DNA from: Sphingomonas sp. Leaf357
GTDB taxonomy: Bacteria; Pseudomonadota; Alphaproteobacteria; Sphingomonadales; Sphingomonadaceae
Direction: 5' to 3'
NCBI RefSeq assembly: GCF_001423845.1
Contig: NZ_LMPM01000001.1
Location: 824,657-888,656, forward strand
Length of the DNA: 64,000 nt
The stretch's first letter is position 1. Every line of letters begins with the position of its first letter. The position numbers were made by a program, and so were the translations under genes. A model generated the notes under the pieces. It was not told the DNA's origin, made no database searches, and was given only the letters and a program-made list of their open reading frames with translations. Below, one piece after another: positions 18,462-36,177 of this stretch.

Positions 18462-19073
18462 ATGGCGGCGGAGGACAAGGGCAAGGGCAAGGATTCCGGA
18501 GCGGGCATTGGTCCCGAGGCGGGGTCGGCAACGGGCGACCGGCCGGGCAAGGCGCGCGTGCACGTGCGGGTGACGCGAGGCGGCGAGGGCAAGGTCTCGC
18601 GCTGGAGCGCGACCGAGAAAGCGGTGTTCCTGGACGTGCTGTCGGCGACGGGCAACATCACCCGCTCGGCGCAGGCGGTGGGGCGGACCGGGCAGTCGGC
18701 GCACCATCAACGCCGGAGCGATGCGGCGTTCGCGGCGGATTGGGTCGCGGCGATCGAGGCGGCGTGCCTGAAGCTGCAGGCGTCGCTGGTGGCACGGGCG
18801 ATCGGCGATCGCGACGAGGATGCTCCGGGGGCCGAGGCGGCGGGGGTATGCGCCACGTGCGGGGCGGAGCGCGGGCGTCCGTTCGATCCGGACTTGGCAC
18901 TCGCCTTCCTGCGCTTCCGCGCGACAATGGACGGGAAACCACCGCGCGCCGGCGCGCCGGCGCATTATCGCCCGGTGCCGATCGCCGAGGTGGAGGCGTC
19001 GCTGACGCGGAAGATCGCCGCGATCGTGAAGGCGCGGGGCACGAAGCGGGCGGCGGGCGCGAAGAAAGGGTGA
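18462..19073 (+). CDS. GTA terminase small subunit-like protein (g1 position)
   Basis: A 203-residue protein with a basic Gly/Lys N-terminal region, then WSATEKAVFLDVLSATGNITRSAQAVGRTGQSAHHQRRS, an HTH of the kind in small terminases that recognises DNA or assembles rings, and a C-terminal helical region. A CATCG pair (VCATCG) is near the middle. ATG 18,462 follows GGGGGGG. It sits immediately before the large terminase gene, six bases apart, matching g1 in RcGTA. GTAs package host DNA nonspecifically, so pac recognition is not expected. Confidence 0.8.
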   Translation: MAAEDKGKGKDSGAGIGPEAGSATGDRPGKARVHVRVTRGGEGKVSRWSATEKAVFLDVLSATGNITRSAQAVGRTGQSAHHQRRSDAAFAADWVAAIEAACLKLQASLVARAIGDRDEDAPGAEAAGVCATCGAERGRPFDPDLALAFLRFRATMDGKPPRAGAPAHYRPVPIAEVEASLTRKIAAIVKARGTKRAAGAKKG

Positions 19074-19079
19074 GGGCGC

Positions 19080-20636
19080 ATGGACGGAACGGGGGCGGTG
19101 GAACGGGCGGTTCTGAATCAGATGGGGCTGGACCAGGTGGGGCTGGACCAGACGGGGCTGGACCAGATGGTGCTGGATCAGGTGGTGGCGGACCAGGTGG
19201 TGCTGGACCAGACTGCGGCCGAACAGGCGGCGGCCGAACGGGCGGCGATCGCGCGGGCGGTCGCCGCGCAGGCGGCGGCCGATGCCGCGGCGCGGGCGCG
19301 GATCCTGGCCGAACTGATGGGGCTGAGCGGGGTGGAATTGCAGGTGCTGTGGCGGCGCACGAGCGGGGCGATCAAGCACACGCTGGACGGCGACTGGCTG
19401 TTCTGGGCGCATGCCGGGCAGACGGCGCCGGCCGGCGACTGGCGGGTGTGGGTGATCCGGGCCGGACGCGGGTTCGGCAAGACGCGGGCGGGGGCGGAGT
19501 GGGTCAGCGGGATCGCGCGGGCCAGCCCGAAGGCGCGGATCGCGCTGGTCGGCGCGACGCGCGAGGACGTGCGCCGCGTGATGATCGAAGGCGAGGCCGG
19601 CCTGCTGGCGGTGGCGCGCAGCGACGAGCGGCTGGAATATTCCGCGACGGCGGGGGAGGTGAGGTTTCCCTCCGGTGCGTGCGGCTACGTCTTCGCGGCG
19701 AGCGCGCCGGAGAAATTGCGCGGGCCGGCGCATGACGCGGCATGGTGCGACGAACTGGCCAAGTGGCGCTACGGCGACGCGGCGTGGGACAATCTGGTGC
19801 TGGGCCTGCGCAAGGGCGACGCCCCGCGCGTGCTGGTGACGACCACGCCCAGGCCGGTCACGCTGATGCGCCGCGTGCTGAGCGGCAAGGACGTGACCGA
19901 GACGACCGGGCGGACCTATGACAATCCGCATCTGCCCGACGCGTTCGTCAGCTCGGTCGAGGATCTCTATGCCGGATCGCGGCTCGGGCGGCAGGAACTG
20001 GACGGCGAGCTGATCGACGATGTCGAGGGGGCGTTGTGGACGCGGGCGATGATCGAGGCGTGCCGCGTGCGGAGCGAGGCGGCCCCGCCGCGCGACGCTC
20101 TGGTGCGGGTGGTGGTCGCGGTGGATCCGCCGGCGGGGACGGTGTCGGGCGTCGGCGGCGATGCGTGCGGCATCGTGTGCGTCGCGCTGGGCGGCGACGG
20201 GCTGGGCTATGTGCTGGAGGATGCGACGGTGGCGGGCGGGTCGCCCGAAGGCTGGGCGCGCGCGGTGGCGGCGTGCGCCCAGCGGTGGCACGCCGACCGG
20301 GTGGTGGCGGAGCGCAACCAGGGCGGCGAGATGGTGCGCAGCGTGCTGAAGGCGGCGGATGCCGCGCTGCCGATCACGCTGGTGCATGCGAGCCGGGGCA
20401 AGGTGGCGCGGGCCGAGCCGGTGGCCGCGTTGTACGAGACCGGGCGGGTGCGGCATGTCGGCGCCGGGCTGGGCGCACTGGAGGATGAACTCTGCGGCCT
20501 GGTGGTCGGCGGCGCGTATGTCGGGGCGGGCGTCGGTGCCGGCGGGCAATCGCCGGACCGGGCGGATGCGCTGATCTGGGCGCTGACGGAACTGATGCTG
20601 GGCCGCCGGGCGAAGGCGGCGGTGCGACCGCTGTGA
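19080..20636 (+). CDS. GTA terminase large subunit (g2)
   Basis: A 518-residue ATPase-nuclease that packages DNA into proheads. The Walker A motif GRGFGKT is at residues 129-135. The Walker B/coupling region lies around AWCDELAKW, and nuclease acidic residues lie in VVVAVDPPAG and later QSPDRADALIWA. Residues ~13-48 are an unusual extension of repeated five-residue units (GLDQV, GLDQT, GLDQM, VLDQV), encoded by a ~15-base tandem repeat. The ATPase/nuclease core is family-typical. Confidence 0.93.
   Translation: MDGTGAVERAVLNQMGLDQVGLDQTGLDQMVLDQVVADQVVLDQTAAEQAAAERAAIARAVAAQAAADAAARARILAELMGLSGVELQVLWRRTSGAIKHTLDGDWLFWAHAGQTAPAGDWRVWVIRAGRGFGKTRAGAEWVSGIARASPKARIALVGATREDVRRVMIEGEAGLLAVARSDERLEYSATAGEVRFPSGACGYVFAASAPEKLRGPAHDAAWCDELAKWRYGDAAWDNLVLGLRKGDAPRVLVTTTPRPVTLMRRVLSGKDVTETTGRTYDNPHLPDAFVSSVEDLYAGSRLGRQELDGELIDDVEGALWTRAMIEACRVRSEAAPPRDALVRVVVAVDPPAGTVSGVGGDACGIVCVALGGDGLGYVLEDATVAGGSPEGWARAVAACAQRWHADRVVAERNQGGEMVRSVLKAADAALPITLVHASRGKVARAEPVAALYETGRVRHVGAGLGALEDELCGLVVGGAYVGAGVGAGGQSPDRADALIWALTELMLGRRAKAAVRPL
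19110..19225 (+). repeat. ~15-base tandem repeat inside terminase gene
   Basis: About seven imperfect copies of a unit like GGGCTGGACCAGGTG stand in a row and remain in frame, encoding the xLDQx pentapeptides of the N-terminal extension. Unit length divisible by three means copy-number change would not shift the frame. Confidence 0.75.
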
Positions 20637-20808
20637 CCGTGCCATTCCGGCACGACCCGCGAAGTGTTGCGGCGTGTTGCATATGGGATTCATATGGAAA
20701 TTCGGGCGTGGGCGCGGCGGGTTAAAGCGGGGTTCATTCTTCCGGGATCGGGGCGATCGGCGCCGCATCCGATGGGGAATGCAACGCTAGAAATCCTGGA
20801 GCATCAGC

Positions 20809-21354
20809 ATGAAGACGATGAAGAACCTGATTGCGGCGGCGGTGGCGGTCGGCGGGCTCACGGCCGCCGGCGATGCCGAGGCGGCGCTCGTGACCTATGT
20901 CGTGAACGGCACGTTCAGCGACGGATCCGTGTTGAGCGGATCGTTTTCGTACGATCCCGACGGATCGGCCTTCAGCCAGTTTTCGGACATCAACCTGTCG
21001 GTCAGCGGGGTCGGCACCTTCACCTCGGTCAGCGGCCTCTATTATACCGGCGTATCGACGGGCAGCGGGGATTACGGCCTGACGACCTGGTCGACCCTGC
21101 TGCCGGGATCGTTCCTCGGGCTGAACTTCTCGGCGACCCATACCGACCTCGTCCTGACCGCGATCACCAACAGCGTGCTGAACGGCGCGACCTATCTCTA
21201 CACCAATGCGGCGGTGGTCAGCCTGGTCAGCGGCACGATCACCGCCGCGCCCGTGCCCGAGGCGGCGACCTGGGCGATGATGGTCGCCGGGTTCGGGCTG
21301 ATCGGCGGCTCGCTGCGCGCGCGCCGGACCCCCGCCCGGGTGAGCTTCGCCTGA
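20809..21354 (+). CDS. PEP-CTERM-like secreted protein embedded in GTA cluster
   Basis: A 181-residue protein with a signal peptide (MKTMKNLIAAAVAVGG...AEAAL), a Ser/Thr/Gly-rich middle with two- to three-residue repeats (SGSFSYDPDGS), and the end VPEAATWAMMVAGFGLIGGS plus LRARRTPAR. The PEP proline is replaced (PEA). It interrupts the terminase-portal order of the GTA and has its own terminator, so it appears to be an insert with no GTA role. Confidence 0.85.
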   Translation: MKTMKNLIAAAVAVGGLTAAGDAEAALVTYVVNGTFSDGSVLSGSFSYDPDGSAFSQFSDINLSVSGVGTFTSVSGLYYTGVSTGSGDYGLTTWSTLLPGSFLGLNFSATHTDLVLTAITNSVLNGATYLYTNAAVVSLVSGTITAAPVPEAATWAMMVAGFGLIGGSLRARRTPARVSFA

Positions 21355-21382
21355 GCGGCTGCCCAGGGCCCGACACCGCCGA

Positions 21383-21412
21383 AGCCGCTGGCCGAAAGGC
21401 TGGCGGCTTTTT
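21383..21412 (+). terminator. Rho-independent terminator after the PEP-CTERM insert
   Basis: AGCCGCTGGCC and GGCTGGCGGCT pair with two wobble pairs around GAAA and run into TTTTT. It lies inside the GTA cluster, between terminase and portal, so it could split GTA transcription. Confidence 0.8.
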
Positions 21413-21458
21413 GCCGTCCGCGCGTTAAGGGGGGCGTCCACCGCGCCGGGAGAATGAC

Positions 21459-22130
21459 GTGACGCCCATGGAATTGATCGATGTCGCCGAAGTGCCGGGC
21501 GGGCCGCCGCTGCGGCTGTTCCGGCGCGGCAGGGATCACATGATCCTGCTGGAACGCAACGAACTGATGAACAGCCGGATGAGCGGTTCGGAGGAAGCGC
21601 TGGCGGTGATGACGTGCGCGCGGCTCGGCAAGCGTAGGGCCTTGCGCATGCTGATCGGCGGGTATGGCATGGGGTTCACGCTGCGCGCGGCGCTGGCCAC
21701 GCTGGAGGCGGACGCGCGGATCGAGGTGGCGGAACTGGTGCCGAAGATCCTGGACTGGGCGCGCGGGCCGATGGCCGACCTGACCGGCGACTGCCTGGAG
21801 GACGCCCGCGTCGAGATCGTGTTCGAGGACGTCGCGGTGCCGATCCTGAATGGGGCGGGGGCATATGACGCGATCCTGCTCGACGTCGACAACGGGCCGG
21901 ACGGGCTGGTGCGCGAGCGCAACGGACGGCTCTATTCGGCGCGCGGACTGGCGGCGGCGCGCGACGCGCTGCGGCCGGGCGGGGTGCTGGCGGTATGGTC
22001 GGCGGGATCGGACGAGAAATTCACCCGGCGGCTGCGCGATGCCGGCTTCGCGGTGGACGAAGTGGCGGTGAAGGCGCGGTCGAACGGCAAGGGGCCGCGG
22101 CACGTGATCTGGTTCGCGACGCGGACTTGA
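21459..22130 (+). CDS. Spermidine synthase-like methyltransferase-fold protein
   Basis: A 223-residue SpeE-like protein. It shows MLIGGYGMGFTLRAAL as the nucleotide-binding loop, IEVAELVPKILDWAR, AYDAILLDVDNGP and LRPGGVLAVWSAG. These are class I methyltransferase/aminopropyltransferase features. Start is GTG 21,459 because GGGAG lies six bases upstream; ATG 21,468 is the alternative. Substrate is unknown. It is part of the non-GTA block between terminase and portal. Confidence 0.82.
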   Translation: MTPMELIDVAEVPGGPPLRLFRRGRDHMILLERNELMNSRMSGSEEALAVMTCARLGKRRALRMLIGGYGMGFTLRAALATLEADARIEVAELVPKILDWARGPMADLTGDCLEDARVEIVFEDVAVPILNGAGAYDAILLDVDNGPDGLVRERNGRLYSARGLAAARDALRPGGVLAVWSAGSDEKFTRRLRDAGFAVDEVAVKARSNGKGPRHVIWFATRT

Positions 22131-22226
22131 AGTCGTTTCGACTTGGGTGATATTATCGACGGGCGATGACCGGCAATTCGTTCGGTACGGCAAGTGCCCG
22201 TTAACGGTGTCGAGATAGGAAAAGCC

Positions 22227-22541
22227 ATGGATCGCCAGCCGCCATCCCTGTTGTGTTTCGCGCACGGAAATCCGTTGGGGTGGGAAGCACTGTGCATCGA
22301 CCTGGACATATCCGTTCAGGGCGACACGTTCGACGACGTGAGGGCGCTGCTCAGCAAAGCGGTCGGCAGTTACATCGATGCGGCGCAGGATGAAGCACCC
22401 GATGTGCGGGCGAAACTGCTCAGTCGCCGGGCACCTTGGTGGGTTAGCGCTGGGATGACGATGCGACTGATCGCCTTCAACGTTTTCCGTGGACGGACGA
22501 GAGAGGCACAGGCTAGCTTTCCTGTGGCATGCCCCGCTTAG
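22227..22541 (+). CDS. hicB: HicB-like antitoxin domain protein (DUF1902-like)
   Basis: A 104-residue protein with CFAHGNPLGWEALCIDLDI, the HicB-type partial RNase H fold, then VRALLSKAVGSYIDAA and a C-terminal hydrophobic helix. No DNA-binding domain is obvious. ATG 22,227 follows AGGA. Its end overlaps the start of a HicA-like frame by 13 bases, a normal antitoxin-toxin overlap but in reverse order (antitoxin first). Because the toxin is broken, this antitoxin is probably an orphan. Confidence 0.7.
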   Translation: MDRQPPSLLCFAHGNPLGWEALCIDLDISVQGDTFDDVRALLSKAVGSYIDAAQDEAPDVRAKLLSRRAPWWVSAGMTMRLIAFNVFRGRTREAQASFPVACPA

Positions 22542-22760
22542 TCTGCACCTTCGAACGATTCATCGCGATCCTCGAAGCCAACGGATTTCAACTCCATCGT
22601 CATGACGGCACGAGCCATCGCCAATATCGTGGGCGTGGTGGGTGGCGACGTGAAGTTCGTGACCGTGGCTGCGCATCGCATGTCCGATGACATCAAGCGC
22701 GGCACGCTCAGTTCGATGATCCGTCAGAGCGGGTTACCGAAAGGTCTTTTCAGAAACTGA
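22529..22760 (+). pseudogene. hicA: Frameshifted HicA-type toxin
   Basis: From ATG 22,529 the frame gives MPRLVCTFERFIAILEANGF...DGTSHRQYRG, a HicA-like start with the conserved G-T/S-S-H region, but stops at 22,690. Shifting by one base near 22,630 (a GGG run) restores VVGGDVKFVTVAAHRMSDD and GTLSSMIRQSGLPKGLFRN up to TGA at 22,758-22,760, the usual HicA ending. A one-base insertion thus inactivates an otherwise full-length toxin, unless it is a sequencing error. Too short for routine ORF lists. Confidence 0.7.
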
Positions 22761-22799
22761 TCCCGAGTTTCGGTGAGCGAAGGGCATGTTTTGCACATG

Positions 22800-22829
22800 T
22801 GCTTCGACAAGCTCAGCACGAACGGGTGG
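22800..22829. repeat. Family C repeat half-site
   Basis: GCTTCGACAAGCTCAGCACGAACGG resembles the arms of the element at 28,587-28,668. It stands in the gap between hicA and portal. Confidence 0.55.
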
Positions 22830-22840
22830 GTGTGCGAGTC

Positions 22841-22876
22841 CTCCCTCCGACCCCTCCCGCAGGCGGGAGGGGAGAA
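22841..22876. repeat. Family D hairpin upstream of portal gene
   Basis: CCCCTCCCGC and GCGGGAGGGG form a perfect hairpin 21 bases before the portal start. Similar C/T-rich hairpins precede five further GTA genes. Confidence 0.65.
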
Positions 22877-22896
22877 GATTATTTAGGAGCATCGAC

Positions 22897-24045
22897 ATGA
22901 AATTGTTCGGCTGGAAATCGGCCGGCCGCGGAGAGTCGCGTCCGGTGTTGTCGCGGGTGTGGGGGACGCGGTCGGTGGGGGAATGGCCCGCGTCGTACGA
23001 GGCGCAGGTGCGGGCGGCGTATCTGGGCAATGCCATCGCGCAGCGGTCCGTGCGGCTGATCGCCGACGGGTTGGGGGAGGCGCCGTTGCGCGTGTCCTCG
23101 CCGGAGATCGAGCGGCTGTTGCGGACGCGATCGGGCGGGCAGGGATTGCTGGCGACGCTGGCGGCGCACCTTCTGCTGCACGGAAACGGATATGTCCAAG
23201 TGTCGAGCGACGGCGCGGGCGAGGCGGTCGACCTGTTCGCGTTGCGGCCCGAACGCGTGTCGGTGGTGGCGGACGCGGGCGGGTGGCCGGTCGCGTACGA
23301 TTACAAGGTCGGCGACCGGACGGTGCGGCTGGCGGCGGAGGATCCGGACGGGCGGGTCGAGATCGTCCATATCAAGGCGTTCCATCCGCTCGACGATCAT
23401 GCCGGGCTGGGGTGCCTGGGCGCGGCGGCGGGGGCGATCGCGGTGCACAATGCGGCGGCAAAGTGGAACGCGGCATTGCTGGGCAATGCGGCGCGGCCGT
23501 CGGGCGCCCTGGTGTACGATGCCGGCGACGGCGCGGGCCTGTCGGCGGAGCAGTTCGCGCGGCTGAAGGCGGAGATGGAGGCGGGCTTTTCCGGCGCGGC
23601 CAATGCCGGGCGACCGATGCTGCTGGAAGGCGGGCTGAGATGGCAAGCGCTGTCGCTGACGCCGGCGGACATGGATTTCGCCGGCATGCGCGCGACGGCG
23701 GCGCGGGAGATCGCGATGGCGTTCGGCGTGCCGCCGATGCTGCTCGGCCTGCCGGGCGATGCGACCTATGCCAATTACCGCGAGGCGAACCGGGCCTTGT
23801 GGCGGCTGGCGATCCTGCCGCTGGCGGGATCGATCCTGGCCGGCGTGACCCAGGGCCTGAAGGGGTGGTTCCCGCAAGCCGAGGCGAGCGTGGATCTCGA
23901 TCGCCTGACGGCGCTGGCCGAGGATCGCGAGCGGCTGTGGGCGCAGGTGAACGCGGCGGATTTCCTGAGCCGGGAGGAGAAGCGGGCGATGGTCGGCATC
24001 GGCGCCGGCCTGGTGGGGGGCGGGGCGGAGGAGCCTGGGACATGA
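22897..24045 (+). CDS. GTA portal protein (g3, HK97 family)
   Basis: A 382-residue HK97-type portal protein, forming the dodecameric ring through which DNA enters the capsid. Typical segments: SVRLIADGLGEAPLRV, HLLLHGNGYVQV, ALRPERVSV, IVHIKAFHP, WNAALLGNAARPSGALV and AFGVPPMLLGLPGDATYANYREANRALWR. ATG 22,897 follows AGGAG; upstream codons in frame are repeat sequence. Its stop overlaps the next start (ATGA). Confidence 0.93.
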   Translation: MKLFGWKSAGRGESRPVLSRVWGTRSVGEWPASYEAQVRAAYLGNAIAQRSVRLIADGLGEAPLRVSSPEIERLLRTRSGGQGLLATLAAHLLLHGNGYVQVSSDGAGEAVDLFALRPERVSVVADAGGWPVAYDYKVGDRTVRLAAEDPDGRVEIVHIKAFHPLDDHAGLGCLGAAAGAIAVHNAAAKWNAALLGNAARPSGALVYDAGDGAGLSAEQFARLKAEMEAGFSGAANAGRPMLLEGGLRWQALSLTPADMDFAGMRATAAREIAMAFGVPPMLLGLPGDATYANYREANRALWRLAILPLAGSILAGVTQGLKGWFPQAEASVDLDRLTALAEDRERLWAQVNAADFLSREEKRAMVGIGAGLVGGGAEEPGT

Positions 24046-24347
24046 GCGGGGCGGTATTGGCGCAACTGATGGCGCAGGCGGCGGAAGGCGGCGCGGATCT
24101 GGTGGCGCTGCGCGCGATCGCCGAGGAAGCGGGCGAACTGGGCGCGAGCCGGGCGCTGTCCCGGCTCGGGCTGGAGGATGCGCAGGCGGCGAAGGACATG
24201 GCCGACCTGCGCGACCTGCTGACGGCGTGGCGCGAGGCGAAGAAGTCGCTGTGGCAGGCGCTGTTCGGCTGGGCGGTGCAGATGCTGCTGGTGCTGGCAC
24301 TGGCCGGGCTGGCGGTGAAGCTGGGCCTGTCCGGGGTGTCGCGGTGA
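24042..24347 (+). CDS. GTA-associated DUF6127 protein (g3.5 position)
   Basis: A 101-residue protein with a long charged helix (residues ~1-72, possible coiled coil) and one C-terminal transmembrane helix (FGWAVQMLLVLALAGLAVKLGL). It is tied to its neighbours by ATGA at 24,042 and GTGA at 24,344. The position between portal and protease matches g3.5 of RcGTA. Function is unknown; a membrane-bound helper is inferred from the helix. Confidence 0.75.
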   Translation: MSGAVLAQLMAQAAEGGADLVALRAIAEEAGELGASRALSRLGLEDAQAAKDMADLRDLLTAWREAKKSLWQALFGWAVQMLLVLALAGLAVKLGLSGVSR

Positions 24348-24736
24348 GCGTGCGCTTCGCCGGCTATGCGGCGGTGTTCGATCGCGTCGACCGGGGCGGC
24401 GACGTGGTGCGGCCGGGGGCGTTCTCGGGCGGTGGCGCGGTGCGCCCGGTGCCGTTGCTGTGGCAGCATCGCGGCAGCCCGGTGGGGGTGGTCGAGACGC
24501 TGGCCGAGGACGAGCGCGGGCTGCGCGTGATCGGGCGGATCGAGGATCTCGGGCTGGCGGGGCTGGTGGCGTCGGGCGCGGTGCGGGGGCTGTCGTTCGG
24601 CTACCGCGTGGTGGCGGCGCGGGAGGGGCGACAGGGCGCGTGGGTGCGGGAACTGACGGGCGTGGATCTGGTGGAGATCAGCCTGGTCGCGCAACCGATG
24701 CAGGCGCTGGCGCGGGTGCATGCGGTGGAGGGGTAG
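24344..24736 (+). CDS. GTA prohead protease (g4, HK97 family)
   Basis: A 130-residue U35-type serine protease that cleaves capsid and scaffold during head maturation. It has RFAGYAAVFDRVDRGGD, VVRPGAF, PLLWQHRGSPVG with the catalytic His, GLSFGYRV with the catalytic Ser, and LVEISLVAQPM. The GTG at 24,344 overlaps the previous stop. RcGTA g4 is of similar size. Confidence 0.92.
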   Translation: MSVRFAGYAAVFDRVDRGGDVVRPGAFSGGGAVRPVPLLWQHRGSPVGVVETLAEDERGLRVIGRIEDLGLAGLVASGAVRGLSFGYRVVAAREGRQGAWVRELTGVDLVEISLVAQPMQALARVHAVEG

Positions 24737-24965: not shown

Positions 24966-26006
24966 ATGACCGAGAGTTTGGAAGCGAGTTTCAAGGGCGT
25001 GAACCTGGGCGGCGCAGGCGCGCGGCCGTTGCTGGAGGGGGCTCGGGCACCGGGCGGGGCGGCATTCGGCGGGTTCCTGCGCAACGGTGCCAGCGTCGAG
25101 ATGAAGTCGTTCACCGGCCTGACCGGCGATGCGGGCGGCTTTGCCGTGCCGCGCGAGATCGATGCGGAAATCCAGGCGACGTTGAAGTCGATCTCGCCGA
25201 TCCGCTCGGTCGCCAATGTCGTGCAGGTCGGCAGTGCCGGCTATCGCAAGCTGGTGACGACCGGGGGTACGCCGTCGGGCTGGGCGGCGGAGACCGGGCC
25301 GCGGGCGGAGACCGCGACGCCGGTGTTCACCGAGATCGTGCCGCCGATGGGCGAATTGTTCGCCAATCCGTCGGCGAGCCAGGCGATGCTCGACGATGCG
25401 GCGTTCGACGTCGAGGCGTGGCTGGCGAGCGAGATCGCGATGGAGTTCGCCAAGGCGGAGGGCTCGGCCTTCGTGAACGGCAGCGGGACCAACCAGCCCA
25501 AGGGGTTCCTGCAGGCGGCGACGTCGGCGGCGACGGATGCGACGCGGACCTTCGGGACGCTGCAATATCTGCCGTCGGGCGCGGCGGGTGATTTCGGCAG
25601 CAATCCGCAGGACCGGCTGATCGATCTCGTCCAGGCGCTGCGCGCGCCGTACCGGCAGGGGGCGGTGTTCGTGATGAACGCGGCGACCGTGTCGCGCATC
25701 CGCAAGTTCAAGACGGCGGACGGGCAGTTCCTGTGGACGCCGTCGCTCAGCGCGGGGCAGGCGGCGACGTTGCTCGGCTATCCGGTGATCGAGGCGGAGG
25801 ACATGCCGGACGTGGCGGCGAACGCGCTGTCGATCGCGTTCGGCAATTTCAAGGCGGGCTATCTGATCGCGGAGCGCAGCGAGACGGTGATCCTGCGCGA
25901 TCCGTATTCGAACAAGCCGTTCGTCAATTTCTACGCGACGAAGCGGATCGGCGGGTGCGTTTCGAACAGCGAGGCGATCAAGGTGATGAAGTTCGCGGCT
26001 TCGTAG
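24966..26006 (+). CDS. GTA major capsid protein (g5, HK97 fold)
   Basis: A 346-residue HK97-fold capsid protein. The N-terminal ~40 residues (MTESLEASFKG...) would be the removable arm, followed by MKSFTGLTGDAGGFAVPREID, the E-loop region, SVANVVQVGSAGYRKLV, WAAETGPRAET, EIVPPMGELFANPSASQAML, VNGSGTNQPKGFL and a P-domain near FVMNAATVSRIRKFK. ATG 24,966 follows AAGGAG. Upstream in-frame codons are repeat and terminator sequence. Confidence 0.95.
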   Translation: MTESLEASFKGVNLGGAGARPLLEGARAPGGAAFGGFLRNGASVEMKSFTGLTGDAGGFAVPREIDAEIQATLKSISPIRSVANVVQVGSAGYRKLVTTGGTPSGWAAETGPRAETATPVFTEIVPPMGELFANPSASQAMLDDAAFDVEAWLASEIAMEFAKAEGSAFVNGSGTNQPKGFLQAATSAATDATRTFGTLQYLPSGAAGDFGSNPQDRLIDLVQALRAPYRQGAVFVMNAATVSRIRKFKTADGQFLWTPSLSAGQAATLLGYPVIEAEDMPDVAANALSIAFGNFKAGYLIAERSETVILRDPYSNKPFVNFYATKRIGGCVSNSEAIKVMKFAAS

Positions 26007-28862: not shown

Positions 28863-29427
28863 GGAAATCGAGCGGCTGGTGGTGAGCGTGCGCGCCGATA
28901 CGGCGGCGTTCGCGCGCGACGTGGGCGAGATGCGCAGCAGCCTGGAGGGGCCGCTGGAGATGGGCGTGGACCGCGCCGGACGGGCGATCGAGGCGGTGCT
29001 GCAACGGGCGGTGCGGACGGGCAAGATCGGGTTCGAGGACCTGCGGACGGTGATCCTGTCGGTGATGGCCGATATCGCCGCGGCGGCGGTGCATAACGGG
29101 CTCGACGCGATTTTCGGGCGGGGATCGGGCGGGTCGGGCGGGAGCAGCGACGGCTTGCTGTCGCTGGTGACGGGGCTGATCTCCGGCGCGCCGGGGCGGG
29201 CGACGGGCGGGCCGGTGTCGCCGGGACGGGCCTATATGGTCGGCGAGCGGGGGCCGGAACTGTTCGTGCCGACCGGGGCGGGGCGGGTCGAGGCTTCGGG
29301 TGGTGGCGCCGCGCGGGACGTTCGGGTGTCGATCTCGGTGAATGCGCGCGGGGGCGAGGCGCCGGAGGCGCTGGCGCGGTCCGGTCGGCAGGTGGCGCGG
29401 GCGGTCCGGGCGGCGTTGGCGGAGTGA
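28855..29427 (+). CDS. GTA tape measure protein (g11)
   Basis: A 190-residue protein. The N-terminal MDEEIERLVVSVRADTAAFARDV...MRSSLEGPLE is helical. A hydrophobic region (LRTVILSVMADIAAAAV) is followed by Gly/Ser linkers and ATGGPVSPGRAYMVGERGPELFVPTGAGRV, the usual C-terminal tape measure motif. In siphophages this protein sets tail length; 190 residues implies a very short tail, as in RcGTA. ATG 28,855 overlaps the previous gene. Confidence 0.88.
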   Translation: MDEEIERLVVSVRADTAAFARDVGEMRSSLEGPLEMGVDRAGRAIEAVLQRAVRTGKIGFEDLRTVILSVMADIAAAAVHNGLDAIFGRGSGGSGGSSDGLLSLVTGLISGAPGRATGGPVSPGRAYMVGERGPELFVPTGAGRVEASGGGAARDVRVSISVNARGGEAPEALARSGRQVARAVRAALAE

Positions 29428-29523: not shown

Positions 29524-31818
29524 ATGGCATTCTGGCTGGCTCGGGAGCGGACGGTGCAGGCGGAGGGCTTCGTCTCGCGGTTCGATGCGCGGTTCTGGAC
29601 GGTGAATTTTCCGCGGCCGATGATGGCGGCCGTCACGACCACCGCGGCGGATGCGCTGCGCGTGGATGCGGTGTTCTACAAACAGGACGATCTGGCCGGG
29701 CTGATCTGGGAGGCGGAGGACCGGCACGATCATCCGCTGCTGCGCTACGAGACGGCGCGGGACTTTCGCGGGTGCCGCCTGAGTTTCCGCTGGCGGTCTT
29801 CGGGGGTGCTGGCGCTGGATGCGATCAACGGGCCGGTGCTGACGATCGAGGGGCGCGACGAAGCGGGCGTGGCTCGGGCCTGGTACGTGCGGTTGTGGAA
29901 CTACGCGGTGGGCACGCCCACCGACGCGACGGTGCGGATCGATTTCGCGCGGCTCGATGGCGGGTTCCTGCTGCCGGGCGAGGCCGACCCTGTATGGGCG
30001 GGGGATGTCGACCGGATGTTCGTGTCGCTGGTGCCCGAGGGGTTCAGCGGGAGCGATGCGGCGCTGGCCGCGCCGGTCGAGGCGCAAGTGGACCTGTCCG
30101 ACATCCTCTGCACCGGGCCGGGGGCGGTGCTGGCGGTGGGCGATGTGGTGGTGCCGGAACACGGGCTGTGCATCGCCAGCGGCTATGACGACAGCTATCA
30201 CCTGACGCCGGCGCGACTGCTGCGCAACGCGCTGCACCTGGGGTATCGCGGGAGCATCGTGCATTACCTGGGGATGAGCCATTATTTCCGGCTCGAGGCG
30301 GCGTCCGGCGGGTTCTTCGTGAGCCTGGCAGGCGGCGCGCTGAACGTCGCGGCGGCGGCGTGGCAGCGCGACTTCGCGGCGCGGGCGCAGGCGCTGGGCT
30401 ACGAGATCATCTGGTCGCTGTCGTACGAACTGTTCGACGCGCATTGCTGGGGCGACTGGAAGCAGCGGGCGGCGGATGGTTCGCCGGGGCTGACCGGATG
30501 GGTGCCGCCGTCCGCCCTGCTGTCGCCGGCACACGCCGGGGCGATGGCGTATCTGCGCGCGGTGGCCGTGGCGGTGATGGGGATCGCGGTGGCGGCGGGG
30601 CTGGCCCCCAAATTCCAGATCGGCGAGCCGTGGTGGTGGGTGATGCCGGACGGGCGGCCGTGCCTGTACGACGATGCGGCGAAGGCGGCGCTGGGGGGCG
30701 ATCCGGTGGCGATCCCGAACGTGCGGGAGGCTTTGTCCGTGGCGCAGATCGCGGTGCTGGATGCGGCGGGGGCTCTGCTGTCGGATTCGACGGCGGCGCT
30801 GGCGGCGGCGGCCAAGGCGGCGGCTCCGGGGTGCGAGACGCATCTGCTCGCCTATCTGCCGACCGTGCTGGATGCGGCGGCGCCGGAGCTGAAGCGCGCC
30901 AATCTGCCGGTCGGCTGGGCGAAGCCCGCCTTCGATGTGCTGCAGCTGGAGGATTACGACTGGGTGGTGGCGGGCGACAGCGCGTCGACCGCGAAGGGGG
31001 TCAGGCTGGCCGAGGCGAAGCTGGGCTATCCGGCGAACGAGCAGCATTATTTCTCGGGCTTCGTGTTGCGGCCGGACCAGTCCGCGCAGTGGCGCGAGAT
31101 CGCGGCGGCGGCGGAGGCGGCGCGGGCGCGCGGCGTGAAGCGGAGTTTCGTCTGGGCGCTGCCGCAGGTGGTGCGCGACGGCTTCGTGCATTTCGAACTT
31201 GGAGGGGAGGATGCGGTGGAGGCGTTCGACGATGTGCTGTTTCCGCTGGCGCTGGGGCGCGAGGCGGAGGTGATGCCGGAATTCTCGACCGCGATCCTGA
31301 CCAGCGCGGGCGGGCACGAGGTGCGCAATGCGGGCTGGGCGGCGGCGCGGACGCGCTACGATGTCGGGCCGGGGATCAGATCCGAGGCGGATATCGCGGC
31401 GTTGCTGGACTTCTTTCGCGCGCGGATGGGGCCGGCGCGCGGGTTCCGCCTGCGCGATCCGTTCGATGCGTCCTCGGGCGCGGGGAGTGCGCTGGATCAG
31501 CGTCTTGGCGTGGGGGACGGAACGACCGTGCGCTTCGCCCTGGTCAAGCATTACGGGGACAGCACGCGGCGGATCACACGGCCGGTCGCGGGGAGCGTGA
31601 AGGTGGCGGTGGGGGGTGTGGCGGTTGCCGGCTTTACCGTTTTGGCGGGCGGGTTCGTCGCGCTGGATGTCGCGCCGGAGGCGGGCGTGGTCGTGACGGC
31701 GGGCTTCGCGTTCGATGTGCCGGTGCGGTTCGCGGAGGACGGGCTGGCGGTGAACCGGGCGACGTTCCTGGCGGGGGCGGCGGCCAGCGTGCCTTTGGTC
31801 GAGGTTCGGGAAGAATAG
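29524..31818 (+). CDS. DUF2460 protein with large N-terminal extension (g12 position)
   Basis: A 764-residue protein. The C-terminal ~210 residues (FPLALGREAEVMPEFSTAI..., NAGWAAARTRYDVG, FFRARMGPARGFRLRDPFD and the GDGTTVRFALVKHYGDS ending) are DUF2460, the distal-tail protein of RcGTA (there ~210 residues alone). The first ~550 residues are extra and contain HLGYRGSIVHYLGMSHYF, ALGYEIIWSLSYELFD, PKFQIGEPWWWVMPDGRPCLYDD and FDVLQLEDYDWVV, suggesting a TIM-barrel, glycoside-hydrolase-like fold (inference). ATG 29,524 follows AAGGG. It could bind or trim surface glycans at the tail tip. Confidence 0.85.
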   Translation: MAFWLARERTVQAEGFVSRFDARFWTVNFPRPMMAAVTTTAADALRVDAVFYKQDDLAGLIWEAEDRHDHPLLRYETARDFRGCRLSFRWRSSGVLALDAINGPVLTIEGRDEAGVARAWYVRLWNYAVGTPTDATVRIDFARLDGGFLLPGEADPVWAGDVDRMFVSLVPEGFSGSDAALAAPVEAQVDLSDILCTGPGAVLAVGDVVVPEHGLCIASGYDDSYHLTPARLLRNALHLGYRGSIVHYLGMSHYFRLEAASGGFFVSLAGGALNVAAAAWQRDFAARAQALGYEIIWSLSYELFDAHCWGDWKQRAADGSPGLTGWVPPSALLSPAHAGAMAYLRAVAVAVMGIAVAAGLAPKFQIGEPWWWVMPDGRPCLYDDAAKAALGGDPVAIPNVREALSVAQIAVLDAAGALLSDSTAALAAAAKAAAPGCETHLLAYLPTVLDAAAPELKRANLPVGWAKPAFDVLQLEDYDWVVAGDSASTAKGVRLAEAKLGYPANEQHYFSGFVLRPDQSAQWREIAAAAEAARARGVKRSFVWALPQVVRDGFVHFELGGEDAVEAFDDVLFPLALGREAEVMPEFSTAILTSAGGHEVRNAGWAAARTRYDVGPGIRSEADIAALLDFFRARMGPARGFRLRDPFDASSGAGSALDQRLGVGDGTTVRFALVKHYGDSTRRITRPVAGSVKVAVGGVAVAGFTVLAGGFVALDVAPEAGVVVTAGFAFDVPVRFAEDGLAVNRATFLAGAAASVPLVEVREE

Positions 31819-31822
31819 GGTT

Positions 31823-32043: not shown

Positions 32044-32853
32044 ATGACCTTTCTGGACGGTGCGCTGACGACGATCGCCTTGTGCTGGCGGATCGAGCGG
32101 CGGGATGGGGTGGTGATCGGGCTGACCGATCATGACCGCGATCTCGCGATCGGTGGGCTGGTGCACCGCGCCGCGCCGGGGATGACGCCGTCGGCGATCG
32201 AGCGCAGCGACGGGCTCGAGGCGGACACGATGGACGTTTCGGGAGCGCTGACCTCGGCGGCGATTACGGAGGCGGATCTGCTCGCCGGGCGCTGGGACGG
32301 GGCGCGGGTGCGGATCTTCGCGGTGGACTGGACCGGTCGCGAGGGTCGTGTCGATCTTGGCGAGGGGGTAATCGGGGCGGTCGAGACCAAAAACGGGGGC
32401 TTCTCCGCCGAACTGCGCGGGGTGAGTGCGGCGCTGGACCGGCCGGTAGGGGAGGAGACGTCGGCCGAATGTCGCGCCGAGCTGGGCGACCGGCGCTGTC
32501 GGGTGGCGATGGCGGGGCGACGGCGGTTCGCGCGGGTGCTGTCGGTGACCGAGCGGGTGGTGACGCTGGATGCGGACGAGCCGGAGGCGGGCGCGTATGC
32601 CGGGGGGCTGGCGCGGTGGTTCTCGGGAGCGAATTCGGGCCTGAGCGCGGCGATCTCGGCATCCGCCGGCGCGACGGTGACGGTGCGGGCGGAACCGGCG
32701 CTGAGCGTCGCGGCGGGCGATCTGGTCGAGCTGTCGCACGGCTGCGACAAGAGCCTGGCGACGTGTGCGGCGCGGTTCGGCAACGTCGCCAACTTTCGCG
32801 GCGAACCGTATCTGCCGGGGATCGACCTGCTGACGCGGTATCCGGGGGCATGA
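32044..32853 (+). CDS. GTA hub protein, DUF2163 (g13)
   Basis: A 269-residue DUF2163 protein. It has LTDHDRDLAIGG, GLEADTMDVSGAL, WTGREGRVDLGEGVIG and SHGCDKSLATCAARFGNVANFRGEPYLPG. Cys143, Cys152, Cys234 and Cys241 are spaced as in hub proteins reported to hold an iron-sulfur cluster in RcGTA (from memory of the cryo-EM work). It sits at the tail tip with the g14 and g15 proteins. Its stop overlaps the next start by ATGA. Confidence 0.9.
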   Translation: MTFLDGALTTIALCWRIERRDGVVIGLTDHDRDLAIGGLVHRAAPGMTPSAIERSDGLEADTMDVSGALTSAAITEADLLAGRWDGARVRIFAVDWTGREGRVDLGEGVIGAVETKNGGFSAELRGVSAALDRPVGEETSAECRAELGDRRCRVAMAGRRRFARVLSVTERVVTLDADEPEAGAYAGGLARWFSGANSGLSAAISASAGATVTVRAEPALSVAAGDLVELSHGCDKSLATCAARFGNVANFRGEPYLPGIDLLTRYPGA

Positions 32854-33251
32854 GCGGGCGCGAGAAATCCGTGGCCGCGGCGCAGGGCGCGGTGGGGGCG
32901 AAGTTCCGTCTGCACGGGCGCGATCCGGCGTTCGGGCTGGATTGTGTCGGGCTGGCGGGCCTCGCGATGCGGGCGGCGGGGTGCGCGGGCGAGATACCCG
33001 GCGGCTATGCCTTGCGCGGTGGATCGGCGGTGGATGTCGTCACGCTGATCGATGCGCGCGCGCTGGTGCGCGTGGATGTGCCGCTGCCGGGCGACCTGAT
33101 GCTGTTCGCGGCGGGGCCGGCGCAATTCCATCTCGCGATCAAGAGCGCGGGCGGGTTCGTGCATGCCGATGCGATGCTGAGACGCGTGGTCGAGCGGCCC
33201 GATCCGGCGCCGTGGCCGTTGGTGGCGGCGTGGGGGGTGGCCGAGGAATGA
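32850..33251 (+). CDS. NlpC/P60-type hub peptidase (g14)
   Basis: A 133-residue small peptidase with GLDCVGLAGLAMRA (catalytic Cys32), GDLMLFAAGPAQFHLAI (catalytic His94) and a third polar position near His105. It corresponds to RcGTA g14, thought to cut the recipient's peptidoglycan during DNA entry. Start ATG 32,850 overlaps the upstream stop. Confidence 0.9.
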   Translation: MSGREKSVAAAQGAVGAKFRLHGRDPAFGLDCVGLAGLAMRAAGCAGEIPGGYALRGGSAVDVVTLIDARALVRVDVPLPGDLMLFAAGPAQFHLAIKSAGGFVHADAMLRRVVERPDPAPWPLVAAWGVAEE

Positions 33252-33421: not shown

Positions 33422-33501
33422 GCGCTGGGTGGACGTGTCGCGGGAGATAATTGCCGGACGGTCGGACCGAAAATAATCAGGCAATATAGAGGGGGAGCAG
33501 C

Positions 33502-35661
33502 ATGGCGACGTTGGTGCTGACGGCGGTCGGCGGGGTGATCGGCGGGCCGGTGGGGGCGGCGATCGGCAGCCTGATCGGGCAGAAGATCGACCGCGACGTG
33601 CTGTTCAAGCCCGGCGATCGCGAGGGGCCGCGATTGCAGGAACTGGCGGTGCAGACGTCGTCCTACGGCACGCCGATCGGCCACGTGTTCGGCACGATGC
33701 GGATCGGCGGCTGCGTGATCTGGGCGACCGATCTGCGCGAGAGCAGGTCGACGACCAGCGCCGGCAAGGGGCAGCCGGATGTCGCGAGCTACAGCTATTC
33801 GGCGTCGTTCGCGGTGGCGCTGTCGGGGCGGCCGATCCGGGATGTCGGGCGGATCTGGGCGGACGGCAACCTGCTGCGCGGCGCGGCGGGGGACTTCAAG
33901 AGCGCGACCGGGTTCCGGTTGCACACCGGCGGCGAGGATCAGGCGGTCGATCCGTTGATCGCGGCGGCGGAAGGCGGGCTGGCACCGGCGCATCGCGGCA
34001 TCGCCTATGCGGTGTTCGAGGATCTGCAGCTGGCGGATTACGGCAATCGCATCCCGTCGCTGACGTTCGAGGTGATCGGCGACGACGGCGCGGTGAGGAT
34101 CGGGGCGATCGTGCGCGAGGTATCGGACGGTCTGGTGGTGGCGGACGACGGCGCGGACCTGCTGGCGGGCTTCGCGGCGTATGGCGATACGCGGTCGGTG
34201 CTGGAGATGCTGGCGGCGGCGGGCGGGGCGTGGTTCGCGCCGGAGGGGGCGACCCTGCGGATGCGCAGCGCCCCGACGCCGGTGGCCGAATTGCGCGACG
34301 ACGGGTTCGGATCGGGCGCGAAGGGGCAGATCGGCGACCGGTCGGTGGCGGCGATCGAGACCGTGCCGGTCGGCGTGACGGTGGCGCATTACGATCCGGC
34401 GCGCGATTACCAGACCGGCGTGCAGCGCGCGCGGCGGCCGGGGCCGGGGCGGCGCGAGGAGCGGATCGAGCTGCCGGCGGCGGTATCGGCCGATCTGGCC
34501 AAGACGCTGGCCGAGGCGCTGATCGCGCGCGGCGAGGCGGGGCGCGAGCGGCGCACGCTGGCGCTGGGCTGGGGCGATCTGGCGGTGCCGCCGGGGGCGT
34601 GCGTGACGATCCGTGGCACGCCCGGCGTGTACCGCGTGACGAGCTGGGCATTCGAGAACAAAGTGGTGAAGCTCGGCTGCGTGCGGCTGGCGGCGGCGAG
34701 CGCGCCGGCCAGCGCCAGCCCGGGACGGGTGCTGTCGTCACCCGATATGCTGGCCGGCACGACGATCCTCCACGCGTTCGAGATCCCGCCGCTCGACGAT
34801 GCGGTGCTGAGCGCGCCTCGGCTGACGATTGCGGCGGCGGGGACGGCGAGCGGCTGGCGGCGGGCGGCGCTGCTCTACAGTCTCGATGACGGCGCGGTGT
34901 GGCAGGCGGCGGGGGCGAGCAGGGGCGTGGCGACGCTGGGCACGCTGGCGAGCGTGCCGGGGGCGGGGCCGTCGAGCATCGTCGATCGGGTCGCCAGTTT
35001 CGAGATCGAGCTTGCACATGCCGAGATGGCGCTGGTCGGCGCGGATGCGCGCGCGCTGGAGGCCGGCGCGAACGTCGCTCTGGCGGGCGACGAACTGCTG
35101 CAGTTCGGCGTGGCGACGCAGATCGGGGCGCGGCGCTGGCGGCTTTCGGAACTGTGGCGCGGGCGGCGCGGGACGGAGGCCGCGATCGGCACGCAGGCGA
35201 CCGGCGACCGCTTCGTGCTGCTCGCGGCCGATACGGTCGCGACGATCGATCTGCCGTTGTCGGCGATCGGCGGAACGGTGCGCGTGCTGGCGAGCGGAAT
35301 CGGCGACGTTTCCGGGCCGGTCGAGACCGATGCCGCGCTGCGGGGTATTTCGGTGCTGCCGCCCTCGCCCGTGCATCTGCGCGCCGAGGTGTTGCCCGGA
35401 GGTGACGCCGTGCTGCGCTGGGTTCGGCGCAGCCGATCGGGGTGGCGCTGGATCGACGGCGTGGATGCGCCGCTGGCCGAGGAACGCGAGGCGTATCGCG
35501 TGACGATAACGGCGCCGGGTGGCGCGCGGACGACCGAGACGGCGGTGGCGGAGATCGTCGTTGCGGCGGCCGATCTCGGCGGCGGCGCCACCGCGACCGT
35601 GCGGCAGGTGGGCGCGTACGGCGAATCGCCGCCGGTAGAAATACTTCTGCCGGCTGTTTGA
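33502..35661 (+). CDS. GTA tail-tip host-interaction protein (g15), shortened
   Basis: A 719-residue protein starting with ATLVLTAVGGVIGGPVGAA, a membrane-like Gly helix, then QELAVQTSSYGTPIGHVFGTMRIGG, SYSYSASFAVALSGRPI, RIWADGNLLRG and AYAVFEDLQLADYGNRIPSLTFEV, all typical of the g15 'megatron' and lambda gpJ-like baseplate hub. The C-terminal ~300 residues are variable beta-domains probably facing the receptor. RcGTA g15 is ~1300 residues, so this version lacks a large part. ATG 33,502 follows GGGGGAG. Confidence 0.9.
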   Translation: MATLVLTAVGGVIGGPVGAAIGSLIGQKIDRDVLFKPGDREGPRLQELAVQTSSYGTPIGHVFGTMRIGGCVIWATDLRESRSTTSAGKGQPDVASYSYSASFAVALSGRPIRDVGRIWADGNLLRGAAGDFKSATGFRLHTGGEDQAVDPLIAAAEGGLAPAHRGIAYAVFEDLQLADYGNRIPSLTFEVIGDDGAVRIGAIVREVSDGLVVADDGADLLAGFAAYGDTRSVLEMLAAAGGAWFAPEGATLRMRSAPTPVAELRDDGFGSGAKGQIGDRSVAAIETVPVGVTVAHYDPARDYQTGVQRARRPGPGRREERIELPAAVSADLAKTLAEALIARGEAGRERRTLALGWGDLAVPPGACVTIRGTPGVYRVTSWAFENKVVKLGCVRLAAASAPASASPGRVLSSPDMLAGTTILHAFEIPPLDDAVLSAPRLTIAAAGTASGWRRAALLYSLDDGAVWQAAGASRGVATLGTLASVPGAGPSSIVDRVASFEIELAHAEMALVGADARALEAGANVALAGDELLQFGVATQIGARRWRLSELWRGRRGTEAAIGTQATGDRFVLLAADTVATIDLPLSAIGGTVRVLASGIGDVSGPVETDAALRGISVLPPSPVHLRAEVLPGGDAVLRWVRRSRSGWRWIDGVDAPLAEEREAYRVTITAPGGARTTETAVAEIVVAAADLGGGATATVRQVGAYGESPPVEILLPAV

Positions 35662-35673
35662 GAGGAGGACGCG

Positions 35674-36177
35674 ATGAACGACGATGCGACCGCCAGGCTG
35701 GGCCTGCCGACGATTCGCCCGGGCCAGGCGCAAAAAGAATCGTCCCATAACGAAGCCCTGACGCTGATCGACCTGGTGGCGCAGGCCGGCGCGGTGGCGT
35801 TCGGGACGAACGCGCCGCCGGCCGCGCCGGTGACCGGCCAGGCGTGGGTGATCGGCCCGGCGGCGGCCGGTGCGTGGGCGGGCCGGGCCGGGCAACTGGC
35901 GGGATGGACCGACGGCGGCTGGCGGTTCGTCGTGCCGTTCGAGGGGCTGGCGGTGTGGATCGAGGAAGCGGCTGAGATCGCGCGATATTCGGGCGGGGGC
36001 TGGGTACTCGGCGAGCTGCGCGGCGCGCGCGTGACGATCGGTGGGGTTCAGGTGCTCGGCGGGCGGCGGGCGGCGATCGCCGGACCGGCGGGCGGCGGCA
36101 CGATCGACGCCGAAGCGCGTGCCGCGATCGCCGCGATCCTGGCGGCATTGCGGGGCCATGGCCTGATCGAAACCTGA
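35674..36177 (+). CDS. DUF2793 protein, last gene of the GTA cluster
   Basis: A 167-residue protein: LGLPTIRPGQAQKESSHNEALTLIDLVAQAGAV, GQAWVIGPAAAGAWAGRAGQLAGWTDGGWRFV and a variable C-terminus. DUF2793 occurs in alphaproteobacterial phages and GTAs next to tail genes and may be a tail fibre or spike part. It starts 12 bases after g15. The 120-base gap before the OmpA gene marks the end of the cluster. Confidence 0.85.
   Translation: MNDDATARLGLPTIRPGQAQKESSHNEALTLIDLVAQAGAVAFGTNAPPAAPVTGQAWVIGPAAAGAWAGRAGQLAGWTDGGWRFVVPFEGLAVWIEEAAEIARYSGGGWVLGELRGARVTIGGVQVLGGRRAAIAGPAGGGTIDAEARAAIAAILAALRGHGLIET

What the first reader, a model, noticed from the sequence alone, without database searches (positions are those of the whole stretch)
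18462..36177. Near-complete gene transfer agent cluster
All main structural genes g1-g15 in RcGTA order are on one strand with many ATGA overlaps; the tape measure is only 190 residues; no integrase, replication or lysis gene is present. This suggests a domesticated particle that packs host DNA, not a prophage. The frames are intact apart from inserts, so it may be functional.
Basis: partly seen in the sequence, partly recalled or inferred. Interest (0 to 1): 0.75.

Follow-up and report, generated by a model that had tools for sequence, protein, structure and literature searches.

The report
Sphingomonas gene-transfer particle with hybrid tail
This is an intact set of genes for a virus-like particle that probably carries bits of the bacterium's own DNA between cells, of a kind already known in this group, but its tail protein appears to borrow a collar from an unrelated phage type, and its likely on/off switch lies nearby.

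Summary
Confirmed: window 18462-36177 is a complete, single-strand gene transfer agent (GTA) head-tail cluster of the RcGTA kind in a Sphingomonas-type genome. All 19 frames are open; the tape measure is 190 aa; no integrase match lies in the window. GTA clusters in Sphingomonadales are in print, so the finding as given is a new member of a known kind. Three things go beyond it. (1) g12 is a fusion: its first ~560 residues match tail proteins of phage N4 (sheath N-domain, TIM barrel), only the last ~200 the RcGTA distal tail protein, while g15 lacks the 'peripheral' part of RcGTA's megatron. The two barrel families did not co-occur in 144 class genomes; another lineage has the N4 module fused to the hub instead. 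(2) 8 kb upstream sits a GafZ-like gene (DUF6456) divergent from a LexA/cI-fold repressor resembling RogA; the pair is kept in 36 of 40 sampled genomes and DUF6456 lies upstream of the capsid gene in 20 of 83 same-genus genomes. (3) Decay is common but not general: the nearest relative's cluster is broken, 18 of 80 named loci have an interrupted or missing gene. Particle production, DNA content and transfer are inferred, not shown.

The parts
9295..9858 (-). RogA-like repressor: 187 aa, HTH plus LexA/lambda-cI-type C-terminal fold, divergent from the GafZ-like gene
   Evidence: Pfam HTH_31/HTH_3, no S24 match; predicted structure pLDDT 89 matches lambda/186 repressor and LexA, E 9e-7 to 8e-4; divergent pair in 36 of 40 sampled genomes
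9912..10388 (+). GafZ / GafA-C-terminus-like activator or anti-terminator (DUF6456)
   Evidence: PF20057 E 2.8e-42; only match in the genome; upstream of the capsid gene on the same strand within 25 kb in 20 of 83 same-genus genomes
18462..19073 (+). g1, small terminase
   Evidence: phrog_4044 terminase small subunit E 8.7e-9
19080..20636 (+). g2, large terminase, with a 15-nt tandem repeat at its 5' end (about 19094-19243)
   Evidence: PF03237 and PF17289; repeat family D1
20637..22896 (+). Insert between g2 and g3: PEP-CTERM protein 20809-21354, spermidine-synthase/methyltransferase-like 21468-22130, HicB-like ORF 22227-22541 (by eye, no family match)
   Evidence: methyltransferase in 13 of 80 relatives, in 12 between g2 and g3, in L046 before g3 without a g2 match
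22897..24045 (+). g3, portal
   Evidence: PF04860 E 7e-70; TIGR01537 above cut-off
24042..24347 (+). DUF6127 protein at the g3.5 place
   Evidence: PF19622 E 8e-27
24344..24736 (+). g4, prohead protease
   Evidence: PF04586, TIGR01543
24914..24949 (+). terminator-like hairpin with T-run; stem ends 26 nt before the capsid start
   Evidence: a hairpin plus T-run at this place in 21 of 78 relatives, 0 in shuffles
24966..26006 (+). g5, major capsid protein (346 aa; searches used a start 3 codons upstream)
   Evidence: Rcc01687 E 5.5e-88; TIGR01554
26155..26427 (+). head spike base, Rcc01079 family, inside the head cluster
   Evidence: NF048002 E 2.3e-31; 6tb9 chain E 4.7e-10; after g5 in 13 of 80 relatives (12 before a g6 match, one contig ends)
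26496..27044 (+). g6, head-tail connector/adaptor
   Evidence: TIGR02215 above cut-off
27041..27247 (+). 68-aa ORF at the g7 (stopper) place; no family match
   Evidence: dN/dS 0.95 and 1.02 in two relatives
27244..27639 (+). g8, tail terminator/completion
   Evidence: PF11367 E 3.7e-10
27767..28174 (+). g9, tail tube
   Evidence: PF06199 E 3e-40
28249..28554 (+). g10, GTA-gp10
   Evidence: PF11836 E 1.5e-21
28554..28862 (+). g10.1, rcc01693-like; a palindromic repeat lies in frame in its 5' half (28585-28671)
   Evidence: TIGR02216 E 8e-6, below cut-off; inverted repeat I1
28855..29427 (+). g11, tape measure, 190 aa
   Evidence: phrog_8892 tape measure E 4.8e-9; length
29524..31818 (+). g12, fusion: N4-type tail-sheath N-domain (about 17-206) + TIM barrel (about 211-554) + distal tail protein (about 567-764); searches used a start one codon upstream
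   Evidence: PF23844 E 5e-97, PF23845 E 1e-167, PF09343 E 2e-67; N4 chains and Rcc01695; predicted fold
32044..32853 (+). g13, baseplate hub
   Evidence: TIGR02218 E 1.7e-65
32850..33251 (+). g14, NlpC/P60-like cell wall peptidase
   Evidence: TIGR02219 E 8.5e-4, below cut-off
33502..35661 (+). g15, short megatron (719 aa) without the peripheral domain
   Evidence: Rcc01698 residues 21-204 and 993-1288 matched; 229-672 to 818-1265 of other megatrons, hhalign E 2e-94
35674..36177 (+). DUF2793 tail-fibre-like protein
   Evidence: PF10983 E 8e-25; tail-fibre PHROGs

Best explanation
An intact RcGTA-type gene transfer agent of the Sphingomonadales form. Shown by sequence: a full set for a DNA-filled, short-tailed particle and no integrase match in the window. 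Inferred mechanism: a RogA-like repressor holds the GafZ-like gene off; when released, GafZ lets RNA polymerase read the cluster through internal terminator-like hairpins; TerS/TerL pack pieces of host DNA headful-wise into an HK97-type head; a short tail (190-aa tape measure) ends in a six-fold ring of g12, whose N4-type sheath and TIM barrel form a collar that binds or trims recipient surface sugars; hub and short megatron form the gated baseplate; the NlpC-like peptidase opens peptidoglycan; lysis genes elsewhere in the genome, not identified here, release particles.
For: Family matches to the main RcGTA genes in order; capsid, Dit, spike base and megatron ends matched to solved RcGTA chains; all 19 frames open; dN/dS below 1 in 124 of 126 comparisons with 8 relatives; low carbon content v host and own prophage; no order violation in any of 80 named loci, and 40 of 48 that hold both ends have all 15 scored genes found and uninterrupted; no integrase match in window; GafZ-like gene and LexA-fold repressor conserved as divergent pair and linked to the cluster; precedent in Caulobacter for RogA, GafYZ and anti-termination (PMC9632790, PMC11150451, passages).
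Against: No expression, particle or packaged-DNA data. The nearest relative's copy is broken and 18 of 80 named loci have an interrupted or missing gene, among them L028 without g6-g15 and L045 without g10 onward. GTA genes are less constrained than the ompA control. g14 and g10.1 score below their family cut-offs; the g7-place ORF has no family match. GafY was not searched for; the lysis search was uninformative. DUF6456 also occurs in genomes without a GTA-type capsid, so the regulatory link is not exclusive. (Odds lowered from 0.85 to 0.83 after the recount.)
Confidence: 0.83

Rival explanations
1. A recently silenced GTA: frames still open because little time has passed, but the cluster is no longer expressed or no longer makes particles; inserts and palindromes are the first signs of decay.
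For: Nearest relative (capsid 89%) has breaks in 7 GTA genes with normal genome-wide ORF density; interrupted or missing genes in 18 of 80 named loci; a 2.26-kb insert between g2 and g3, palindromes before eight genes and one inside g10.1; 37 of 121 same-genus genomes lack a capsid match at E 1e-100 (hand count).
Against: 19 of 19 frames open; the methyltransferase of the insert is shared by 13 of 80 relatives, 11 of them without interrupted or missing genes, so it is tolerated; dN/dS below 1 in most comparisons.
Confidence: 0.14
2. A prophage or satellite that still moves as a virus and only looks like a GTA.
For: Phage-type genes; such clusters are filed as viruses (80 best IMG/VR hits; MT840053).
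Against: No integrase match in the window, no replication gene seen in the cluster, same place before ompA in 43 of 53 relatives, composition unlike the genome's own prophage.
Confidence: 0.02
3. For g12 only: the N-terminal part is a structural collar without enzyme or receptor role, a leftover of phage recombination.
For: The N4 homologues are tail-structure proteins by name (9lc0 chains); no acid is evident at the end of barrel strand 7, where clan GH-A enzymes have the nucleophile (strands; GH-A rule recalled).
Confidence: 0.4

Closest known systems
RcGTA of Rhodobacter capsulatus
   Same: Gene order, capsid, Dit, hub, megatron ends, spike base, short tape measure
   Different: g12 carries ~560 extra N-terminal residues of N4 sheath type; g15 lacks the ~515-residue peripheral domain; spike base inside the cluster (unlinked in RcGTA, recalled from gene numbers); g7 place divergent; DUF6127 at the g3.5 place; DUF2793 gene at the end
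Sphingomonadales RcGTA-like clusters (PMC6821227, PMC7360931, PMC9765227; Sphingomonas sp. AAP5, PMC8067484)
   Same: This is one of them; low carbon cost, replaced g7; [quoted passage not shown]
   Different: In the passages seen no identity is given for the extra g12 part or the missing g15 part
CcGTA of Caulobacter crescentus with RogA, GafY, GafZ
   Same: GafZ-type DUF6456 protein; LexA-like HTH repressor without conserved Ser/Lys; terminator-like sites inside the cluster
   Different: Here repressor and gafZ-like gene are divergent neighbours near the cluster; no gafY seen beside gafZ; PMC9632790 (passage) names RogA enrichment in four orders, Sphingomonadales not among them
Phage N4 tail (gp64, gp65; PDB 9lc0, 9yf5)
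   Same: Sheath N-domain and TIM barrel, including the acid motifs YE, GEPWWW and EDYDW
   Different: N4 is a podovirus with separate, larger proteins; here the module is fused to a siphovirus-type distal tail protein

Membership tests
RcGTA-type gene transfer agent | Head-tail cluster homologous to RcGTA, same order | tested here: met
RcGTA-type gene transfer agent | No integrase or replication genes with it | tested here: met
   PF00589: 7 in genome, none in window; of the flanking genes only a chosen part was scanned, the rest read by eye; phage remnant at 45.5-49.0 kb lies 9 kb off
RcGTA-type gene transfer agent | Conserved place and vertical maintenance | tested here: inconclusive
   ompA neighbour in 43 of 53 loci; no gene-versus-species tree was made
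RcGTA-type gene transfer agent | Low side-chain carbon content (PMC7360931) | tested here: met
RcGTA-type gene transfer agent | Particles package mostly random host DNA | not testable with these tools
   needs culture
Baseplate megatron equivalog NF048004 | Score over curated cut-off (800 bits) | tested here: not met
   386.9 bits; two stretches matched
Distal tail protein, Rcc01695 family TIGR02217 | Score over cut-off | tested here: met
   178.7 v 136.65 bits, residues 568-763
N4-type non-contractile tail sheath (PF23844, PF23845) | Both domains over cut-off | tested here: met
   323 and 557.5 bits v 27
N4-type non-contractile tail sheath | Assembles round the tail and binds a receptor | not testable with these tools
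   needs particle structure and binding tests
RogA repressor of GTA activators | HTH plus LexA/cI-like domain lacking catalytic residues | tested here: met
   fold match weak in TM-score (0.3-0.6); no Ser or Lys among invariant columns of the C-terminal half of A1
RogA repressor of GTA activators | Orthologous to CCNA_00080 and binds the gaf promoter | not tested
   Caulobacter sequence not fetched
GafZ / GafA | DUF6456 domain | tested here: met
GafZ / GafA | Adjacent or fused GafY (DnaA-like) part | tested here: inconclusive
   none seen beside the gene by eye; genome not searched for it

The most novel reading that the evidence does not exclude
Sphingomonadales GTAs are built as a hybrid: a siphovirus-type GTA whose six-fold distal tail ring carries an N4-podovirus sheath and a glycosidase-like TIM barrel that took over from the megatron's peripheral domain, so recipient recognition or surface-sugar cleavage is done by the tail ring; and they are switched by a divergent RogA-like/GafZ pair that needs anti-termination to read through hairpins inside the cluster.
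Probability: 0.45. Interest if true: 0.7.

Novelty: new variant of a known kind. Interest (0 to 1): 0.5.

Why it matters
Sphingomonadales are reported to show the strongest selection for translational efficiency of GTA genes (PMC9765227, passages), but the passages seen here describe no particle of this order. The regulator pair names the genes to knock out and report on, and the g12/g15 change predicts a different tail end and a testable enzyme or receptor protein. It also suggests that tail modules of podoviruses can enter GTAs by fusion at the Dit/hub junction.

Tried and rejected
Common origin of the g12 barrel and the megatron barrel (PF13547): hhalign of 58 g12 sequences (51 kept by its filter) against 15 megatrons gave probability under 1% (a first try, used wrong frames and is void). 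No sequence evidence; a shared remote ancestor is not excluded, and RcGTA's megatron is not among the fold matches listed (top 50 rows), which shows nothing.

Palindromes as a GTA-specific device: GGGAGAGG occurs 11 times in the window, all at 26.1-32.0 kb, but a related hairpin motif is scattered over the genome (42 forward matches, some overlapping), so it is a dispersed repeat that also lies in these spacers. A tighter 22-base pattern gave only 2 matches in the window, and 3 of 100 shuffles had as many.

Terminators: the region as a whole has no more terminator-like sites than shuffles (6 v 8.7); the place before g5 stands out across relatives (21 of 78), with fewer before g3 (9 of 74), g6 (6 of 76), g12 (5 of 60), g9 (3 of 71), g10 (2 of 70), g15 (2 of 60) and 0 before the other 8 genes tried; single-letter shuffles gave 0 to 2 per gene (a looser finder gave 24 of 79 before g5).

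Second spike base as a GTA accessory locus: it lies in a low-GC prophage-like region on C3 with a GH19-like endolysin. Its recombinase-like ORF was named by eye and did not match PF00589.

Lysis: the GH108 search of the genome was empty, and so were its controls, so it says nothing. A tailocin reading was dropped because capsid, portal and terminases are present.

Four of the 10 lack only DUF6127 or g8, which may be divergence beyond the search (L016, L061, L065, L068).
Full report
WHAT IS THERE. Nineteen open frames on the + strand, 18462-36177, make a complete RcGTA-type head-tail cluster. The capsid matches solved RcGTA capsid Rcc01687 (E 5.5e-88), the end of g12 the distal tail protein Rcc01695, g15 the two ends of megatron Rcc01698, and a 90-aa gene between g5 and g6 the head spike base Rcc01079. 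The small-terminase call for g1 rests on one PHROG. g14 and g10.1 match their families only below cut-off. The 68-aa ORF at the g7 place matches nothing; PMC9765227 (passages) reports that only 7 of 55 Sphingomonadales genomes had a detectable g7. Starts of g5 (24966) and g12 (29524) were set from the sequence after the searches had used starts 3 and 1 codons upstream.

HOST. The best relatives among named loci are Sphingomonas and Hephaestia (capsid up to 83%); the same-genus genomes G131 and G097 have contigs of the same length as records named Sphingomonas hylomeconis and Sphingomonas sp. 28-66-16, so the window is from Sphingomonas in the GTDB sense (inference).

INTACT OR DYING. All 19 frames are open. 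The 80 named loci are the best 80 of 227, and many are cut by contig ends. Fifteen genes were scored; 69 loci no interrupted gene, 8 one, 2 two, 1 three. One search added missing genes where more than 3 kb of sequence lay beyond, or inside the cluster: 10 loci, for example L028 (g6 to g15 gone), L045 (g10 onward gone), L046, L054, L058, L083 (no g2). Together 18 of 80 have damage or loss; of 48 loci that hold both g2 and DUF2793, 40 have all 15 genes found and uninterrupted. No locus breaks the gene order. NG86 dN/dS against G131 (L102): 0.19 (g9) to 0.54 (g6) in 16 GTA genes, g7 1.02, ompA 0.29, inserted methyltransferase 0.33. Over 8 relatives, 2 of 126 comparisons reach 1 (g7 with L102, g8 with L108); medians per relative are 0.36-0.57, against 0.24 for ompA, so constraint is real but looser than in that one host gene; NG86 tends to run high in GC-rich codons (recalled). 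The nearest relative G161 (L101, capsid 89%) has its cluster broken in g2, g3, g4, g6, g10, g13, with a stop in g15. A 200-kb sample of G161 has as many long coding-like ORFs as 160 kb of the window's genome (38 v 40 per 100 kb of 300 aa or more), so this is decay rather than a poor assembly. In the genus sample 92 of 121 genomes match the capsid at E 0.001, 84 of 121 at E 1e-100 with own included (83 hand-copied).

GTA, NOT PROPHAGE. Seven PF00589 integrases lie in the genome, none in the window. Mean side-chain carbon is 2.58 for 19 GTA proteins, 2.81 for 20 host proteins of the window (p 1.7e-5) and 2.81 for 8 proteins of a low-GC prophage region on C3 (p 7e-4), the bias reported by PMC7360931 (passages). 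A region at C1:314 kb with a weak capsid match (27%, E 9e-4) has an ORF of 1373 aa at the tape-measure place (by position and length only), against 190 aa here.

EITHER/OR. In a draw of 144 class genomes, PF13547 is in 16 and PF23845 in 3, with no handle in both. The third PF23845 genome, G329 of another family, has a separate distal tail gene (L171 12844-13491), then an 899-aa protein with NCTSP_N, the TIM barrel and the hub domains in one chain (13805-16504), then a short megatron of 772 aa. Whether G329's element is a GTA or a prophage was not settled; its capsid did not match g5. So the module sits at the Dit/hub junction in two lineages, fused to different neighbours, each time with a short megatron. 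That fits a functional replacement; sequence profiles show no common origin of the two barrels.

SWITCH. The only DUF6456 match of the genome lies at 9912-10388. Divergent from it (starts about 54-96 nt apart) is a 187-aa HTH protein whose predicted fold matches lambda/186 repressor and LexA; Pfam saw only the HTH; the C-terminal half has no invariant Ser or Lys. RogA of Caulobacter is described as an HTH plus LexA/cI-like protein lacking catalytic residues that represses gafYZ (PMC9632790, passages). The divergent pair was found in 36 of 40 DUF6456 neighbourhoods that I chose, linked and unlinked to the cluster; 4 lack the repressor match. Of 83 same-genus genomes with a GTA-type capsid (own excluded), 74 have DUF6456, 40 on the same contig, 24 within 25 kb, 20 of these upstream on the same strand, 4 otherwise; in the nearest relative it is far away. 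In Caulobacter GafZ is an anti-terminator that reads through terminators in the cluster (PMC11150451, passages); here a terminator-like stem ends 26 nt before the capsid gene, and such hairpins occur before that gene in 21 of 78 relatives. DUF6456 also exists in genomes without the capsid, so it may have other targets.

IN PRINT. Sphingomonadales GTAs: PMC6821227, PMC7360931, PMC9765227, PMC8067484 (passages). [quoted passage not shown] I found no text that names the extra g12 part as N4 sheath or reports a RogA-like/GafZ pair in this order; searches: in an open-licence library only, hits seen as listings or passages.

SHOWN v INFERRED. Shown: genes, order, frames, domain make-up, distribution, linkage counts. 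Inferred: particle, DNA packing, regulation, collar role, enzyme activity.

Noticed in passing
window 44512-48981: Next to tRNA-Ser: ParB-N/N6-N4 DNA methylase (45456-46910), a small ORF, and a lone phage terminase (47536-48981) in lower GC; a phage-like remnant unrelated to the GTA.
   Followed up: partly
window 22800-33430: Palindromic repeats of several kinds lie before g3, g5, spike base, g9, g10, g12, g13, g15, and one in frame inside g10.1.
   Followed up: partly
window 19094-19243: 15-nt tandem repeat adds an LDQ-rich stretch to the N-terminus of the large terminase.
   Followed up: no
window 17463-18236 and 20809-21421: Two PEP-CTERM genes, one inside the GTA cluster, each followed by a similar hairpin (39 nt, 85% identical).
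   Followed up: no
L101 (G161): GTA cluster of the nearest relative is decaying in 7 genes while its regulator pair is present and divergent but far away.
   Followed up: yes
L028; L045: Two clusters with large losses: Hephaestia mangrovi has g5 followed directly by DUF2793 and ompA (g6-g15 gone); Sphingomonas sanguinis lacks g10 onward with 8.7 kb to spare.
   Followed up: no
L171 (G329) 13805-16504: N4-type sheath module fused to the baseplate hub protein in another alphaproteobacterial family.
   Followed up: partly
L180-L259; MT840053: GTA clusters seem to be filed as viruses: the 80 best of at least 591 IMG/VR contigs with a g12 relative are 4.6-19.1 kb long except one of 52.7 kb, and a 5.4-kb 'Bacteriophage sp.' record carries g12 and g15 pieces.
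   Followed up: no
L004, L008, L009, L010, L050, L053, L057, L062, L071: In 9 of 13 relatives with the in-cluster spike base, a variable 263-522 aa ORF follows it before g6, perhaps the spike fibre; absent in the window.
   Followed up: partly
L174, L177, L178 (G000 C3:236-265 kb): Prophage-like region with a second spike base, GH19-like endolysin and terminase-like ORF.
   Followed up: partly
window 24914-24949: Terminator-like hairpin before the capsid gene, at the same place with other sequence in many relatives.
   Followed up: partly
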